Assembly: GCF_004010955.1 (NCBI RefSeq)
Contig: NZ_CP025227.1
Coordinates: 1,302,001 to 1,366,000, forward strand
Length of the DNA stretch: 64,000 nucleotides
Direction: 5' to 3'
Origin: Actinomyces wuliandei
Lineage (GTDB): Bacteria; Actinomycetota; Actinomycetes; Actinomycetales; Actinomycetaceae
The notes beneath the pieces were generated by a model, which saw only the letters and a list, made by a program, of their open reading frames with translations, ran no database searches and was not told the origin of the DNA. The stretch's first letter is position 1. The number at the start of each line of letters is the position of its first letter. A program made the translations under genes and the position numbers. Of this stretch, positions 49,873 to 54,953 are shown piece by piece.

Positions 49873-51582
49873 TCACAGGGCCAGCATCCGGCCCGCGACC
49901 ACGGTGGTCAGCGGGCGCACGGCAGCCAGCGCGTCGGCGCCAAGACTCAGCGGGTCCTCCTCCAGGACGACCAGGTCGGCGCGGGAGCCGGGGCGCACCG
50001 GCCCCTGCCCGTCCACGGAGGCCGCCAGGGCCTCCTCGGTGGTAAGCCGCTGGTCGGGTGACCACACCTGGTGGTCTGGGGTGCTTCTGCCGACCGCGAC
50101 CGACATGGCCAGCCACGGGTCCAGCGGGGCCACCGGGGCGTCCGAGCCCAGGTGCAGCAGGGCGCCAGCCGTCACCATGTCGGCAAAGGCGTAGGCTCGC
50201 TGTCTGCGTCCGGGCCAGACCCGTTCCACGGCCTGCCAGTCGTCCAGGAGGTGAGCAGGCTGGACGGAGAGCTCGACCCCGCACGCGACCAGGCGGGCCA
50301 GTGCTCCGGTCCCGGCCTGGGCGGCGTCGTGCGGCAGCAGCTGGGCGTGCTCAAGCCGACCCCGTGCACCGGAGGTGGCAAAGGCGGCGGCGACGTCGTC
50401 CACGGCGGCGTCCCCGATCGCGTGCACCGCCATGTCGAACCCTGCCCGTGAGGCACGGGTCATCAGGGCAGTCAGCCCCTCGCGGTCGATGTTGACCACG
50501 CCGTGGGTGTGGCTCAGCCCCAGGGACTCGGGGTAGGGGTCGTGCACGTGGGCGCTGGCGGTGCCCATCGAGCCGTCGGCGATGACCTTGAGCGGCCCCT
50601 GGGTGAGCAGCGGCACTCCGTCCTCACCCACGGGGGAGCCCTCCAGCCCCTGCCCGGTGCGCAGGCCTGCGGCGATCCACTGGTCCAGGCGGTCGCGGTA
50701 CACGGCGGTGCGGATACGCGGTACAAGCGCAGACGTCCCGTCCCCAAGCGTCGTGGTGACACCGGCCTCAGCCATGGCAGCCAGGCGCAGCGGCCAGTCC
50801 TGCGGGCTGGGTGCCCAGCTCATGTCCACCACCCCGGTGACGCCTTGGCGCAGCAGGTTGTCCAGTACTTGACGGTATCCGGACTCGCGCAGCTGTCGTG
50901 TTCCGGGGATGAGGTCCAGGCGGTCCATGACGGAGAACCAGGCGTCCTCGGTGAGCGGCGCGCCCGGGTCGCTGGTGGTGGCCCCGGGCAGTCCGAGGTG
51001 GCGCAGGGCCGCTGAGCTCAGCCACCCGGAGTGGGCGTCGCCGGAGACCAGGACCACCGGGACGTCACCGCACACGGCGTCAAGCTCGGCGACGGTGGGT
51101 ACTTGCGGCCACAGGGAGAGCCGGTGGCCGAAGCCCTGCACGCTGGCAGGCGGGCGGTCGCGGGGGTGCTCCCGCAGCGCCTGGGCCACCAGGGCGAGCG
51201 CGTCCTGGGCGCAGGTGGTGGCAGAGGTGTCGATGCGCCCCTTCCTGGCGGCTTCCAGGTCCAGGTGGGCATGGGCGTCCCACAGCCCCGGGATGACGTA
51301 GGAGCCCTGCACGTCCAGGATCTGCTCGCCGTGGTAGGGCAGGCTGGGGCCTACCTGGGTGACACGTCCTGCGGAGACGCGGATGTCTGTGACTTGTGTG
51401 CCCTCCTCCGGGCGTGCCTGAGCGCTGGCCGCACCGGTGGCGCCTCGGGGCTGAGGAGGACGGGGTGGGGGCTCCGCGGTGGGGGAGTGGGAGGGGCGGG
51501 GCGAGCAAGCGCGCAGGGCGGCGAGCGTGGGGCGGGAACGAAAGGCGACGATGCGCGCGTGCCGGATCAGCAGGTCGGGCAT
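49873..51582 (-). CDS. Amidohydrolase (YtcJ-like, amidohydrolase family 3)
   Basis: The 569-residue metallo-hydrolase has the N-terminal metal site IPGLWDAHAHLDLE, followed by VLVSGDAHSGWLSSAAL and GVTGVVDMSWAPSP. LKVIADGSMGTASAHVHDPY, HAIGDAAVDDV (a metal His) and LHLGSDAPVAPLDPWLAM follow. The layout matches YtcJ-like imidase/amidohydrolases. The substrate is unknown. A ~35-residue Pro/Ala-rich insert near residues 25-60 is not typical. Its upstream side holds the first four-arm repeat, whose nearest arm is 61 bp from ATG 51582, so that structure may sit in its promoter or leader. Confidence 0.85.
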   Translation of the reverse strand: MPDLLIRHARIVAFRSRPTLAALRACSPRPSHSPTAEPPPRPPQPRGATGAASAQARPEEGTQVTDIRVSAGRVTQVGPSLPYHGEQILDVQGSYVIPGLWDAHAHLDLEAARKGRIDTSATTCAQDALALVAQALREHPRDRPPASVQGFGHRLSLWPQVPTVAELDAVCGDVPVVLVSGDAHSGWLSSAALRHLGLPGATTSDPGAPLTEDAWFSVMDRLDLIPGTRQLRESGYRQVLDNLLRQGVTGVVDMSWAPSPQDWPLRLAAMAEAGVTTTLGDGTSALVPRIRTAVYRDRLDQWIAAGLRTGQGLEGSPVGEDGVPLLTQGPLKVIADGSMGTASAHVHDPYPESLGLSHTHGVVNIDREGLTALMTRASRAGFDMAVHAIGDAAVDDVAAAFATSGARGRLEHAQLLPHDAAQAGTGALARLVACGVELSVQPAHLLDDWQAVERVWPGRRQRAYAFADMVTAGALLHLGSDAPVAPLDPWLAMSVAVGRSTPDHQVWSPDQRLTTEEALAASVDGQGPVRPGSRADLVVLEEDPLSLGADALAAVRPLTTVVAGRMLAL

Positions 51583-51642
51583 GTGCCACTATAACTCGCC
51601 TGGCACGGTGGGGCGTTGCGAACGGCGGGAATATAGCAAGGC

Positions 51643-51873
51643 TGCACATCTTCATCGCCCTGGTGTGCCGCACCAAGGCCTTGTCCTTGCAGGATCCCGC
51701 TGTGCCCAGAGGAGTTAGCCTGACGGCTGCTGCCTGAAGATGTGCAGCGCGCTCCTTGTTGCACATCTTCACTCGCGTTCCGACGTATCTGGGAGGAGAG
51801 AGATCGCGAAGCTGCAAGGATCGTGCCCCTTTGTCGACCACAAGGACGCGTGGCTCAAGCCTGAAGATGTGCA
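51643..51873. repeat. Four-arm repeat locus A (12-bp word TGCACATCTTCA in alternating orientation)
   Basis: TGCACATCTTCA occurs at 51643-51654 and 51760-51771, and its exact inverse TGAAGATGTGCA at 51735-51746 and 51862-51873. The order is forward, inverse, forward, inverse. This gives two units of 104 and 114 bp, each bounded by a perfect 12-bp inverted repeat, separated by 13 bp. The middle pair can also form a compact hairpin (12-bp stem, 13-nt loop). Unit interiors are not obviously alike. No open frame is supported. The same architecture recurs at 54059-54266. Its function is unknown; possibilities are operator array, structured RNA or tandem MITE-like elements. Confidence 0.85.
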
Positions 51874-52156
51874 CCTCATGGTCTGGGAGAGGAGGCAGGC
51901 ATTCTCTGATGCACCCAGAAGTAGTGACAGGCGGGAGCGGGTGGTATCGGGGTCTGTCCCCAGCCGGTGCCTACTGGGACACGGAGTGCCGGGACTAAGC
52001 GGCAGCCAGGCAACCCCGAGCCGGTGCTCCTGGACGACGCTGCCAACGGACTGGGCACCTCAGGTCCTCATGAATGAGATCCGTGAGCATGGCACCAACC
52101 CGCCGAGCACTGGGGAGCTTCGTCGCACGGGTGCGCAGTGCCACAGTGTCTGTGAT

Positions 52157-52246
52157 ACGTACCGTTTCCTCGCAGAAGGCCCTCCCAGAGGGTCGGCATG
52201 CCTGTCGTCCTGTGGGGGGTCGTCGTCCTGCGAGGAAACGGTACGT
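52157..52246 (-). terminator. Perfect 19-bp inverted repeat with long loop, downstream of DDAH-like gene
   Basis: ACGTACCGTTTCCTCGCAG (52157-52175) is repeated exactly, inverted, at 52228-52246 with a 52-nt loop. It lies 63 bp past the stop of the leftward DDAH-like gene. It could end that transcript, but the long loop and lack of a T-run are unusual. The remaining DNA between 51874 and 52308 shows no supported gene. Confidence 0.5.
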
Positions 52247-52308
52247 GTGCGGTCAGGCAACGTCATGCCGGGTGCGGCAGGGCGCTGTCACGGCTAGGAC
52301 CCCGGTAC

Positions 52309-53187
52309 CTAGCCCCTGACTAGCGGGAGCGTCGCGCAACGGAAACCTCCCGGGAATCGCGTGACCTCGGTGAATTTCAGCGGCACCGGGGTGATACCGT
52401 GCGAGGCGAGCTTGCGCCCCAGACGGGTGGCGCGCTCATCAATGATGACGCGGTCGGGCGCCAAGGCAACAGTGTTGACCATGAGCGCGAGCATCTCCTC
52501 CTCGGTGGCCTCGATCAGGTTGAGGAGCTCGGCGACCTTGTCCCGTGATCGGGGTGCCAGGGCGGGAGAGTAGACGTAGCCTAGCCCAGGTCCCACGAGG
52601 GTGAGCTTGGTGTCCAGGTGGACCACACCGCGGTGGGAGAACTCGATGGGGACAATCTCCCGGTCGATCCCCGCCCTGGCGAAGGCGCGCCGCAGCGAGC
52701 CCACCCCCTTGAGGTCGGTGGCCTCGCTGAGCCCCACGAGCACGACGTCGTCAGTGACGATGACGTCCCCGCCCTCAATGTAGCCGTCGTCCAGGGGTAC
52801 GACGCGTGAGACCTCTGCCAGCAGCGGGTAGAGCGCCCTCTGCTCCCGACGGCGCACCGGGTCTACTGAGCGGGCCAGGAACAGGACGTCGTCAACCGCG
52901 AAGGCGATGTCGCGAGGGTAGAGCTGGACGGAGACGTCCTTAAGAGCGTCCAGCGTGTGCACGGTGACTCCGGCCTCACGCAGGGTGGAGACAAACTGCT
53001 CGTGCTCGCGCTGGGCGATGTCATGGTCCGGGATGCTCACCGTGTTGTTGGAGAGGTAGAACACGTAGCTGAGGTTGGGGCTGCGCAGCGTCTCGCGCAC
53101 CAGCGGCCACCATCCGTACCGCTTGTACGGTCCGACGACGACCTCCTTGAGCGGGGCGATGTCGCTGGGGTTGTGGATCTGGATCAT
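52309..53187 (-). CDS. DDAH / arginine deiminase-family hydrolase
   Basis: The 292-residue guanidino-group hydrolase has LYPRDIAF (90-93 YPRD, substrate Asp), YIEGGDVIV (EGGD 138-141), VHLDTKLTL (catalytic His190) and the C-terminal FPGGFRCATLPLVR with nucleophile Cys284. The size fits dimethylargininase (DDAH) or related dihydrolases rather than the ~410-residue arginine deiminase. The product would be citrulline plus an amine or ammonia; the true substrate is unknown. ATG 53187 is 111 bp after the divergent-free TetR stop, and both genes run leftward. An arginase-family pseudogene nearby suggests an arginine or guanidine theme. Confidence 0.85.
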   Translation of the reverse strand: MIQIHNPSDIAPLKEVVVGPYKRYGWWPLVRETLRSPNLSYVFYLSNNTVSIPDHDIAQREHEQFVSTLREAGVTVHTLDALKDVSVQLYPRDIAFAVDDVLFLARSVDPVRRREQRALYPLLAEVSRVVPLDDGYIEGGDVIVTDDVVLVGLSEATDLKGVGSLRRAFARAGIDREIVPIEFSHRGVVHLDTKLTLVGPGLGYVYSPALAPRSRDKVAELLNLIEATEEEMLALMVNTVALAPDRVIIDERATRLGRKLASHGITPVPLKFTEVTRFPGGFRCATLPLVRG

Positions 53188-53298
53188 GATGCTCCTCTGG
53201 CTTGGTTGTGCAGTGGTCTGCTGTCCCGGCGCCCTGTCTAGGTCACTGGTGGCAGCGGGCCGTGGTCCCAGACGCTGACGGCCTGGGCTGGTTGTGTG

Positions 53299-53874
53299 TC
53301 ACTCCGGGGCAAGCTCCGTGATGAGTAAAGGCTCCATCCCCCGGATAAACCAATCTGCGTCGAGAGTGGGGTCAAGTGCGCTCTGCAGCAGGAAGCCGTC
53401 GACTGCGGCCACCAGGACGAGTGCCCTGGCCTCGGCCTCCCCTGTCTGTGCCCCCTCTTGAGCGGTGAGCCGCTCGACGAGCCGGGAACGGAAGGCAGAG
53501 AACATCGCGGCAAGGTCGGTACGCAGCGCAGTGTCGTGCGTGGCTGCGACCAGCGCCTCGTTGAGCAGGGCGACTCTCGGGTCGTCAGGGCCGGAGTCAA
53601 GACGGCTAAGGAAGGCAAGCAGGCCCTCGCGGAGGCTACGCGCATCCACGGCCTCCCGGAAGGGACCCTCCAGGAGCGCGCGCGCACCCTCGCAGACAGC
53701 GATACGTCGCAACTGCTCGATGCTGCCCGTGTGGTAGTGCACGACACCCGGGCTGACCCCAGCACGGTCGGCGACGCGACGTGTGGTCACTGATCCCCAG
53801 CCACCGTCAACGACGAGCTCCTGGGCGGCGGCTATCAGTGCCTGGCGGGTCGAGGTCTTCTCGGTCTCAGGCAC
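53299..53874 (-). CDS. TetR-family regulator beside the DDAH-like gene
   Basis: The 191-residue regulator has helix-turn-helix text SVTTRRVADRAGVSPGVVHY followed by HTGSIEQL and a helical ligand domain (BetI-like). GTG 53874 is chosen: AAAGGAGAG lies just upstream, whereas the longer in-frame extension is non-conserved. It precedes the DDAH-like gene in the same direction and likely controls it. The second four-arm repeat lies 185-392 bp upstream of its start, so it is a candidate protein to bind the repeated 12-bp word. Confidence 0.85.
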   Translation of the reverse strand: MPETEKTSTRQALIAAAQELVVDGGWGSVTTRRVADRAGVSPGVVHYHTGSIEQLRRIAVCEGARALLEGPFREAVDARSLREGLLAFLSRLDSGPDDPRVALLNEALVAATHDTALRTDLAAMFSAFRSRLVERLTAQEGAQTGEAEARALVLVAAVDGFLLQSALDPTLDADWFIRGMEPLLITELAPE

Positions 53875-54058
53875 GACTCTCCTTTCATCTCCTCCGCCGT
53901 GGCGCGCGGCGGACCTGTGCGGATAGGCCGTACACCCGTCTTGGGCGATTGACCAAGACGAGCGTACAAGTTCTGTTGCCCCGATGCAAGTTCTGCTCGG
54001 CACTGCGCCGCGGGCATCCTCCGACTCTGGCGGTACTGAGCTCCGCGCTCCGCGCGGC

Positions 54059-54266
54059 TGCACATCTTGGTTCTGCGGTGAAGCCGCACAGTTCCTGGGA
54101 CTGCGGGGAAACGAGGCTTACGAGAGAACCGGACGCGGCTGAAGATGTGCAGCCCGTGCTGCACTACACATCTTCAGCCGCGTCCGGGCACCGAGGCAGC
54201 CCAGAACCCGCGTCATGACACTAGATTCCCAGCCGCTAGCACGAGCTGTCGGCGTGAAGATGTGCA
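54059..54266. repeat. Four-arm repeat locus B (same 12-bp word and order as locus A)
   Basis: Arms lie at 54059-54068 (TGCACATCTT, then GG instead of CA), 54140-54151 (TGAAGATGTGCA), 54165-54176 (TACACATCTTCA, one change) and 54255-54266 (TGAAGATGTGCA). The two units are 93 and 102 bp, again separated by exactly 13 bp as in locus A. Inner complementary pieces extend the stems: GGTTCT with AGAACC in the first unit, GCCG with CGGC in the second. A changed base in an outer arm is not compensated. It lies between tetR and the arginase-family pseudogene. Confidence 0.85.
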
Positions 54267-54269
54267 GCG

Positions 54270-54953
54270 GTTGCTTGTCGGTGCCGGCCTTGAGGACCTG
54301 ACCTGTATGCGTGAGCACTACCAGCGTCTTCTCGGTGAGGGGCGCAGACCTGTCACGGCCTCAAGCCGGTGCGTGCTCTCCCTGGCCACCGTCCCGGTGG
54401 TCGCGCAGCAGCGCCCCGACGTGGTGGTGCGCTGGCTCAACGCCCACGCCGACATCAACACTCCTGCCACCACAGCCACCGGCTACCTCGGCGGGCTCGC
54501 CCTGGCGGGGCCGCTGGAAGTGGGACTCAGGCCTGGGTGGTGGACTGGCTCCTGGGAGCACGGTTCGTGTGGGCGTGCGTGACATCGACCCGCCTGAGGC
54601 CGACCTGGTCAAGAGAACCGATCTCACCCTTGTCGCGCCCGGTCCCTCCCGGGTTCGGCGAGCGTCTCGGACGGGCTGTCGGCGACAGACCGGTCGCCGT
54701 CCACATTGACTGCGACATTGACTGCGACGTCCTGGAACCTGGCACTGTGCCCACTGACTACCGGGTTCTACCAGGTTCCTGGAGGCCTCACCCTCACCGA
54801 CCTGCGTGCCGCGACCGCCGCGTTGGCGTGGACCGAGGTAGTCGGCATCAAGGTGGATGAGCTGGAGACCTGCACGCAGCACGAGGACCTTGCGCCGCTC
54901 CTGGGTGCGCTGGAGCCGCTTCTCGCATCTATTGACGTGCCTGACAGGGACTG
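54270..54953 (+). pseudogene. Arginase/agmatinase-family pseudogene (several frameshifts)
   Basis: Coding-like text runs through changing frames: SRCVLSLATVPVVAQQRPDV and VVRWLNAHADINTPATTATG (the metal motif, usually WxDAHxDxN). WDSGLGGGLAPGSTVRVGVR and DIDPPEADLVKR follow, then DRPVAVHIDCDIDCDVLEPG (usually SxDxDxxDP) and PGGLTLTDLRAATAAL. The tail is VVGIKVDELETCTQHEDLAP. The order is that of an arginase. At least three frame changes lie between the blocks, at about 54520, 54650 and 54770. The metal site also reads LNAHADIN, with Asn for the first Asp. The gene cannot make a full enzyme unless these are sequence errors. Confidence 0.82.

What the first reader, a model, noticed from the sequence alone, without database searches (positions are those of the whole stretch)
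51643..54266. Two copies of a four-arm repeat architecture built from one 12-bp word
TGCACATCTTCA and its inverse occur four times in strict alternation at 51643-51873 and again at 54059-54266. In both places two units (104/114 bp and 93/102 bp) are separated by exactly 13 bp. Unit interiors differ while the arms and the 13-bp spacing are kept, which argues for selection on the arms. The alternating order would allow mutually exclusive hairpins (1-2, 2-3, 3-4) in RNA. It could equally present half-sites to a DNA-binding protein. I know of no described element with this layout, though I could not search.
Basis: seen in the sequence. Interest (0 to 1): 0.78.

Follow-up and report, generated by a model that had tools for sequence, protein, structure and literature searches.

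The report
Helix-phased paired DNA sites across chromosome
The window holds two members of a genome-wide family of paired DNA sites in Actinomyces, whose short end-words are kept while the DNA between them changes and whose lengths change mostly by whole turns of the double helix, which points to an unidentified protein machine that folds the DNA there.

Summary
The genome holds 170 copies of the 12-bp word (at most 1 mismatch; reversed-pattern control 1), in about 66 places; of 48 clusters checked, none lies inside a predicted gene. The family also occurs in Actinomyces bowdenii and one more species, and is nearly absent from 45 other Actinomyces genomes. Back-to-back words are nearly always 13 bp apart. 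Facing words lie 69, 80, 91, 102, 113, 124... bp apart: steps of about 10.95 bp, one turn of DNA. A palindromic core modelled on A. bowdenii lies in phase with both arms in this genome (38 of the 39 units with a strong core). Between A. bowdenii and the third species, arms differ at 9 of 600 positions and interiors at 299 of 1612. In a sister species, 1 of 41 words is unchanged at 13 orthologous places. Interiors are not unusually foldable as RNA. I read these as double-stranded-DNA assembly sites (arm-core-arm, usually two in tandem) for an unidentified clade-specific protein, dispersed like a miniature element and kept by selection. No RAYT transposase was found, and no tyrosine or serine recombinase or second ParB with the right distribution. 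A chromosome-organising role is the most novel reading, unproven.

The parts
51643..51654 (+). arm 1 of locus A (unit A1, left), exact word
51677..51702 (.). best candidate core of unit A1 (dyad 35 bp from the left arm, 45 bp from the right arm; score 4.7, modest)
51735..51746 (-). arm 2 of locus A (unit A1, right), exact; arm separation 92 bp
51747..51759 (.). 13-bp junction between units A1 and A2
51760..51771 (+). arm 3 of locus A (unit A2, left), exact
51862..51873 (-). arm 4 of locus A (unit A2, right), exact; arm separation 102 bp; no clear core in this unit
54059..54070 (+). arm 1 of locus B (unit B1, left), 2 mismatches
54140..54151 (-). arm 2 of locus B (unit B1, right), exact; arm separation 81 bp; the best core match of this unit is out of phase (16/53)
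54152..54164 (.). 13-bp junction between units B1 and B2
54165..54176 (+). arm 3 of locus B (unit B2, left), 1 mismatch
54198..54223 (.). best candidate core of unit B2 (34/44 bp from the arms; score 5.9)
54255..54266 (-). arm 4 of locus B (unit B2, right), exact; arm separation 90 bp

Best explanation
Each locus is a double-stranded-DNA assembly site, usually two tandem units. A unit is arm (TGCACATCTTCA, inward), spacer, loosely conserved palindromic core, spacer, inverted arm; the next unit follows after 13 bp. SHOWN: arm-arm distances step by about one helical turn; in units with a recognisable core, core-arm distances do so too; arms (and, less strongly, the core centre) change more slowly than the spacers; loci are intergenic. 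INFERRED: a sequence-specific protein or complex binds arms and core and brings them together on one face of the DNA by bending or looping, so that insertions and deletions survive mostly as whole turns; its gene is specific to this clade and was lost in the sister species G015, after which the sites eroded. Copies spread as whole elements, and tandem arrays of near-identical units point to unit duplication. The role (chromosome organisation, or a selfish DNA element whose sites are kept) is inferred only.
For: 170 words against control 1. Junction 13 bp in 8 of 8 places with exact words and a gap of 6 to 20 allowed; of 49 adjacent outward pairs in own loci 41 are 13 bp, 2 are 14 bp, and 6 are other values that all involve a match with 2-3 mismatches. 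Arm separations of 81 own units: resultant 0.91 at 10.95 bp, against at most 0.431 in 2000 jitters; slope over 223 units of three species 10.97 bp per class. Core model trained on A. bowdenii, applied to own units: arm-distance resultant 0.745 against at most 0.224 in 200 shuffles that keep the arm spacing, mean score 5.17 against at most 1.89. A/T-rich positions recur every ~11 bp in the spacer of A. bowdenii 80-bp units. Orthologous loci of own and A. bowdenii have largely unalignable interiors and lengths that differ by about whole turns (91+101 versus 69+69 at L080/L041) and keep most arms. A. bowdenii against G004: arms 9/600, interiors 299/1612. G015: 1 of 41 words unchanged at 13 orthologous places.
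Against: No binding protein was identified. 42 of 81 own units have no strong core (score under 5), and in the window only two of four units have an in-phase best core. The ladder has exceptions (88, 110 and 144 in own, 74 in G004, 161 in A. bowdenii). The data do not separate 10.95 sharply from 10.5 bp (own resultant 0.862 at 10.5; A. bowdenii, with almost only two classes, peaks at 11.4). Arm conservation is ascertained partly through the word itself (G004 loci were fetched because they hold an exact word). A recently dispersed subfamily behaves like a mobile element, which could explain part of the arm identity.
Confidence: 0.73

Rival explanations
1. A miniature transposable element: the arms are terminal and internal recognition sites of a transposase, and the sites have no host role. 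Phasing reflects the geometry of the transposase complex.
For: About 10 own places give pairwise alignments mostly of 200-356 bp, ending at or within some 35 bp of the outer arms in the full-length cases read. The place L093 is occupied in own, and its A. bowdenii counterpart (L014) shows no word within 3 mismatches. Three near-identical tandem units in L038 and in L043.
Against: Old orthologous copies keep most arms while interiors are unalignable or 18.5% diverged, not expected of dead copies. No clear target-site duplication by eye in the flanks (not tested systematically). No RAYT/Y1 transposase in 5 of 5 genomes. DDE transposases were not searched.
Confidence: 0.3
2. Site-specific recombination sites: the core is the crossover site and the arms are accessory sites, as in lambda att or resolvase res (both recalled).
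For: Arm-core-arm anatomy with helical phasing and a palindromic core modelled over 26 bp.
Against: PF00589 finds only two tyrosine recombinases each in G003 and G004 (open frames 346-430 aa, taken by me as XerC/XerD). The large serine recombinase shared by G003 and G004 (80% identical) has no close counterpart in G000, whose only PF00239 match is a 185-residue frame allied to that of G015.
Confidence: 0.1
3. RNA switch with mutually exclusive hairpins 1-2, 2-3, 3-4.
For: Arms are complementary and would pair in any transcript; at locus B the junction palindrome extends to 24-nt arms.
Against: Interiors fold no better than shuffles (mean z between -0.36 and 0.52 in six length classes; 0.12 for 40 own units); loci are convergent, divergent and tandem alike; nearly invariant arms give no covariation; in window 51300-54700 no Rfam family reaches its gathering score.
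Confidence: 0.04
4. Operators of an ordinary regulon (TetR at 53299 or another factor).
For: Looping operators are helically phased (PMC1762422, passages seen); locus B lies upstream of a TetR gene, and another TetR-like gene lies beside the cluster at L086 4310.
Against: Of 48 own clusters 9 are between convergent, 14 between divergent and 25 between tandem genes; the neighbours I recognise by eye are of many unrelated kinds.
Confidence: 0.06

Closest known systems
[quoted passage not shown]
   Same: Dispersed extragenic inverted doublets with conserved ends and a less conserved spacer, singlets and clusters
   Different: No RAYT/Y1 transposase found in 5 of 5 genomes; spacer length is quantised by helical turns rather than one fixed length (GI REPINs 71 bp, passages of PMC3116915); interiors show no excess folding; extra central core
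Noc and SlmA binding sites (nucleoid occlusion)
   Same: Tens of scattered sites, denser towards the origin; passages of PMC4726725 give about 70 Noc and 24-52 SlmA sites, not uniformly distributed
   Different: Those are short palindromes; here two kinds of segment, four arms and helical phasing; no second ParB-domain match in G000, G003 or G004; the terminus sixth is not empty (4 of 66 places)
Phased looping sites (LacR, AraC) and multi-segment sites such as lambda attP or P1 parS (the latter two recalled; a search for P1 parS phasing, listed nothing direct)
   Same: Binding segments held in helical phase; fitted in-vivo lac looping repeat 11.08-11.60 bp per turn (PMC1762422 passages), here about 10.95
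   Different: Tens of chromosomal copies, with spacers that vary in nature over up to nine length classes

Membership tests
REPIN / REP-RAYT | RAYT (Y1_Tnp, PF01797) in the genome | tested here: not met
   0 of 5 genomes at E 0.001, while 5 of 14 control genomes ring
REPIN / REP-RAYT | inverted extragenic doublets with conserved ends | tested here: met
REPIN / REP-RAYT | spacer of fixed length that forms a hairpin | tested here: not met
   separations 69 to 159; interior folding z near 0
MITE of a DDE transposon | terminal inverted repeats bounding homologous copies | tested here: met
   subfamily (alignments end at or within some 35 bp of the outer arms)
MITE of a DDE transposon | target-site duplication | tested here: inconclusive
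   none obvious by eye in the ten flanks printed
MITE of a DDE transposon | cognate transposase in the genome | not tested
   no DDE family was searched
Tyrosine-recombinase attachment site | recombinase beyond XerC/XerD shared by G000, G003, G004 | tested here: not met
   G003 and G004 have two matches each
Serine-resolvase res site | serine recombinase shared by G000, G003, G004 | tested here: not met
Noc/ParB-type site family | second, clade-specific ParB-domain protein | tested here: not met
   one PF02195 match each in G000, G003, G004; two each (the second weak) in G015 and G007
Noc/SlmA-type site family | sites denser near the origin, few near the terminus | tested here: met
   own 66 places, sixths from origin 20,13,13,10,6,4, KS p 0.0008, but p 0.064 for the 45 places with two or more words; G004 p 0.027 with 5 unlisted words assumed near the terminus
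Structured RNA (Rfam) | match over a family's gathering score | tested here: not met
   window 51300-54700: 3 matches, all far below their cut-offs

The most novel reading that the evidence does not exclude
A clade-specific chromosome-folding or segregation system: an unknown protein binds about 60 or more sites of paired arm-core-arm units, denser towards the origin, and folds the DNA at each. Because site lengths are filtered by whole turns, the genomes carry a natural record of the in-vivo helical repeat (about 10.95 bp per turn).
Probability: 0.3. Interest if true: 0.88.

Novelty: new variant of a known kind. Interest (0 to 1): 0.72.

Why it matters
If right, this is a family of dispersed bacterial repeats whose natural variation is filtered by DNA helical phase. 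It gives a sequence-only test of whether a repeat acts as DNA or RNA, a natural estimate of the in-vivo twist of DNA, and a defined bait (short arm, core, spacing rule) for finding the protein. The sister species that lost the sites offers a natural comparison.

Tried and rejected
Autonomous gene between two clusters: the 318-residue gene at L086 11397-12350 (weak PF18741 nuclease-like match, below its cut-off) is flanked by elements in G000 and G003, but G004 has no match to it at E 0.001, so it is not the factor. Tyrosine recombinases, Y1 transposases, serine recombinases and ParB paralogues were tried in five genomes and did not fit. DDE transposases, TetR and other regulator families and gene content as a whole were not compared. 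One A. bowdenii element with its flanks (361 bases) had no match in plasmids or phages, and the exact junction pattern none in viral contigs. A version with a different word in G007 was sought by counting short words in 400 kb and was not seen; that stretch holds another palindromic repeat. Papers: the word or its inverse occurs in 4 papers, none on this subject by title; 'Actinomyces' with 'REPIN' (4 of 4 listed), repeat and helical-phasing terms (5 of 5 listed) and Actinomyces repeat terms (10 of 178 listed) showed nothing relevant. The library lacks most subscription papers. RNA folding and Rfam gave nothing.

Full report
OBSERVATION. Locus A (51643-51873) has four exact words; locus B (54059-54266) has two exact words, one with 1 mismatch and one with 2. 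Both junctions are 13 bp. In the window 11 matches (at most 2 mismatches) stand against a mean of 1.62 expected, and 0 of 100 shuffles reach 11.

FAMILY SIZE. The assembly G000 is one contig of 3,107,761 bp. It holds 84 forward and 86 reverse words with at most 1 mismatch; the pattern read backwards gives 1 and 0. From the 158 of 170 words that the capped listings showed I count 66 places, some of them single words.

RANGE. Exact words: G000 54+54, G003 87+98, G004 39+35, G015 3+4, and 0 to 2 in the other 45 of 49 Actinomyces genomes. A scan of genome contigs for the intact junction found 50 stretches, all in Actinomyces bowdenii DSM 15435 (records near the window's genome may be left out there). 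G003 is most likely that genome, since its contig C1 has the same length, 286,400 bp. No viral contig matched.

JUNCTION. With a gap of 6 to 20 allowed and exact words, 8 of 8 places have 13 bp. Among own loci, counting words with up to 3 mismatches near a good one, 49 adjacent outward pairs lie within 400 bp: 41 at 13 bp, 2 at 14 bp, and 6 at -4 (three), 8, 24 and 68 bp, each of which involves a match with 2-3 mismatches. In one search (A. bowdenii loci, eight own loci and the window) it was 63 of 64. In G004 18 pairs: 13 bp in 13, 12 bp in 1, and 42, 121, 136 and 137 once each.

QUANTISED LENGTHS. With at most 2 mismatches per arm, 3 in all, and separations of 40 to 200 bp, own units number 81: 69 (1), 80 (21), 81 (2), 88 (1), 90-92 (28), 100-103 (15), 110 (1), 113 (5), 123-125 (4), 135, 144, 159 (1 each). 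The best period is 10.95 bp with resultant 0.91 (0.862 at 10.5 bp); 2000 jitters by up to 5 bp reach at most 0.431. A. bowdenii: 105 units, 97 of them at 69 or 80, best period 11.4, which two classes hardly fix, and one unit at 161 off the ladder. G004: 37 units, 34 at 69 or 80, best period 10.9, one unit at 74 off the ladder. A straight line through 223 units, with classes assigned by a step of 11.05, gives 10.97 bp per class, own alone 10.94. The window's four units are 92, 102, 81 and 90, each within about 1 bp of a class.

CORE. A symmetric model of 26 bp was trained on A. bowdenii units only. Of 81 own units 39 score 5 or more; in 38 of these the core dyad lies 24, 34-36, 43-46, 54-57, 66-69 or 76-78 bp from each arm, and the one exception (16/53) is unit B1 of the window. 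Over all 81 units the resultant at 11.0 bp is 0.745 (shuffled interiors with the arm spacing kept: mean 0.07, largest 0.224 of 200) and the mean score 5.17 (largest shuffled mean 1.89). In the window A1 and B2 have an in-phase best core, A2 and B1 do not. In the 80-bp units the A/T profile of the spacer outside the core has a period of 11.1 bp in A. bowdenii (67 units, above all 500 shuffles), 11.0 bp in G004 (22 units, above the 95% level only), and 12.0 bp in own (15 units, barely above the 95% level).

SELECTION. I compared 17 orthologous places of A. bowdenii and G004 (15 with both flanking genes in common, 2 with one). 25 unit pairs of equal length differ at 9 of 600 arm positions and 299 of 1612 interior positions. 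One pair (47 of 68 interior differences, L017/L178) is not orthologous: the script missed the second A. bowdenii unit that one search lists; without it the figures are 7 of 576 and 252 of 1544. Two pairs of unequal length were dropped (80 against 74 and against 69). In the 17 pairs of the 80-bp class, seven central positions, chosen after seeing the counts, differ at 8 of 119. The G004 places were fetched because they hold an exact word, so arm conservation is somewhat overstated. Own and A. bowdenii share places (L072 with L054, L080 with L041, L091 with L018, L085 with L025) whose interiors hardly align and whose unit lengths differ by about whole turns. Most arms remain; at L091 one own arm has 3 mismatches and one has 1.

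LOSS IN A SISTER SPECIES. G015 is the nearest relative in the gene tested (ribosomal protein S1 by my recognition: 95% against 92, 91 and 91% for G004, G003 and G007). In 416 kb of it there are 5 words with at most 1 mismatch. At 13 orthologous places 28 of 41 words fall in gaps, 13 align with 41 differences in all, 1 is unchanged and 1 has a single change; 35 own clusters had no orthologue in the stretches fetched. Several of these places are much shorter in G015 and their near flanks align poorly (identity 0.05 to 0.78), so they show loss but not its steps. Relics are visible by eye. Since A. bowdenii shares places with the own genome, loss in G015 is likelier than gain.

MOBILITY. About ten own places (L059, L060, L067, L068, L074, L084, L093, L097, L103, L109) are alike, mostly over 200-356 bp; at least five carry both units, and the full-length alignments end at or within some 35 bp of the outer arms (the middle of that output was cut). 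The A. bowdenii counterpart of L093 has no word within 3 mismatches, while that of L101 holds a decayed remnant. A. bowdenii has arrays of three near-identical units (L038, L043). Seven of the 17 places show two recognisable units in A. bowdenii and one in G004 (L010, L013, L016, L023, L035, L036, L044); gain, loss and decay were not told apart.

POSITION. With a home-made gene finder, 47 of 48 own clusters overlap no predicted gene and 1 overlaps by at most 40 bp; in A. bowdenii 50 of 55, 4 by at most 40 bp and 1 (L044) by 160 of 197 bp; predicted genes cover 72% and 81% of those stretches. Own: 25 tandem, 14 divergent, 9 convergent; A. bowdenii: 22 tandem, 14 divergent, 7 convergent, 12 at stretch ends. 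The gene at coordinate 18-1826 reads as dnaA (my recognition), so coordinate 0 is taken as the origin. Places per sixth from origin to terminus: 20, 13, 13, 10, 6, 4, KS p 0.0008; for the 45 places with two or more words p is 0.064. G004, origin taken at its parB: p 0.027 with 39 places from 69 of 74 words and the five unlisted words assumed near the terminus.

WHAT BINDS. Unknown. Families tried in G000, G003, G004, G015, G007: PF00589, PF01797, PF00239, PF02195. None is shared by the three carriers in a way that fits. A nuclease-like gene flanked by elements in G000 and G003 has no match in G004.

JUDGEMENT. The dsDNA assembly-site reading rests on the arm-arm periodicity, on the core-arm periodicity tested with arm spacing held, and on conservation. 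The step to a host function rests on conservation at old copies and on loss in G015; a mobile-element reading remains open. I rate it a new variant of dispersed extragenic repeats: the helical quantisation and arm-core-arm anatomy were not seen described in the four searches named.

Noticed in passing
window 52157-52246: Inverted repeat of 30-nt arms (83% complementary, 30 nt apart; inner 15-mer perfect) between the two loci; its inner 14-mer has no exact match in the 233 fetched loci.
   Followed up: partly
window 54129-54187: At locus B the junction palindrome extends beyond the words to 24-nt arms, 96% complementary; no such extension was listed for locus A.
   Followed up: no
L152, L156, L158 (G007): A different repeat, GGACAACCTTTTCGTA facing its inverse 59 bp apart, six copies in 400 kb of G007.
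   Followed up: no
L086 11397-12350: Gene with a weak nuclease-like (PF18741) match flanked by elements in G000 and A. bowdenii, not found at the corresponding place in G015.
   Followed up: yes
L107 4740-7041 and 9381-11679: Two near-copies of a gene pair, each followed by a single-unit element; 452 bp of the element regions are identical: a local segmental duplication.
   Followed up: no
L059, L060, L067, L068, L084, L093, L109: Subfamily with an arm TGCACATCATGG in place of TGCACATCTTCA and long units, mostly 113-159 bp.
   Followed up: partly
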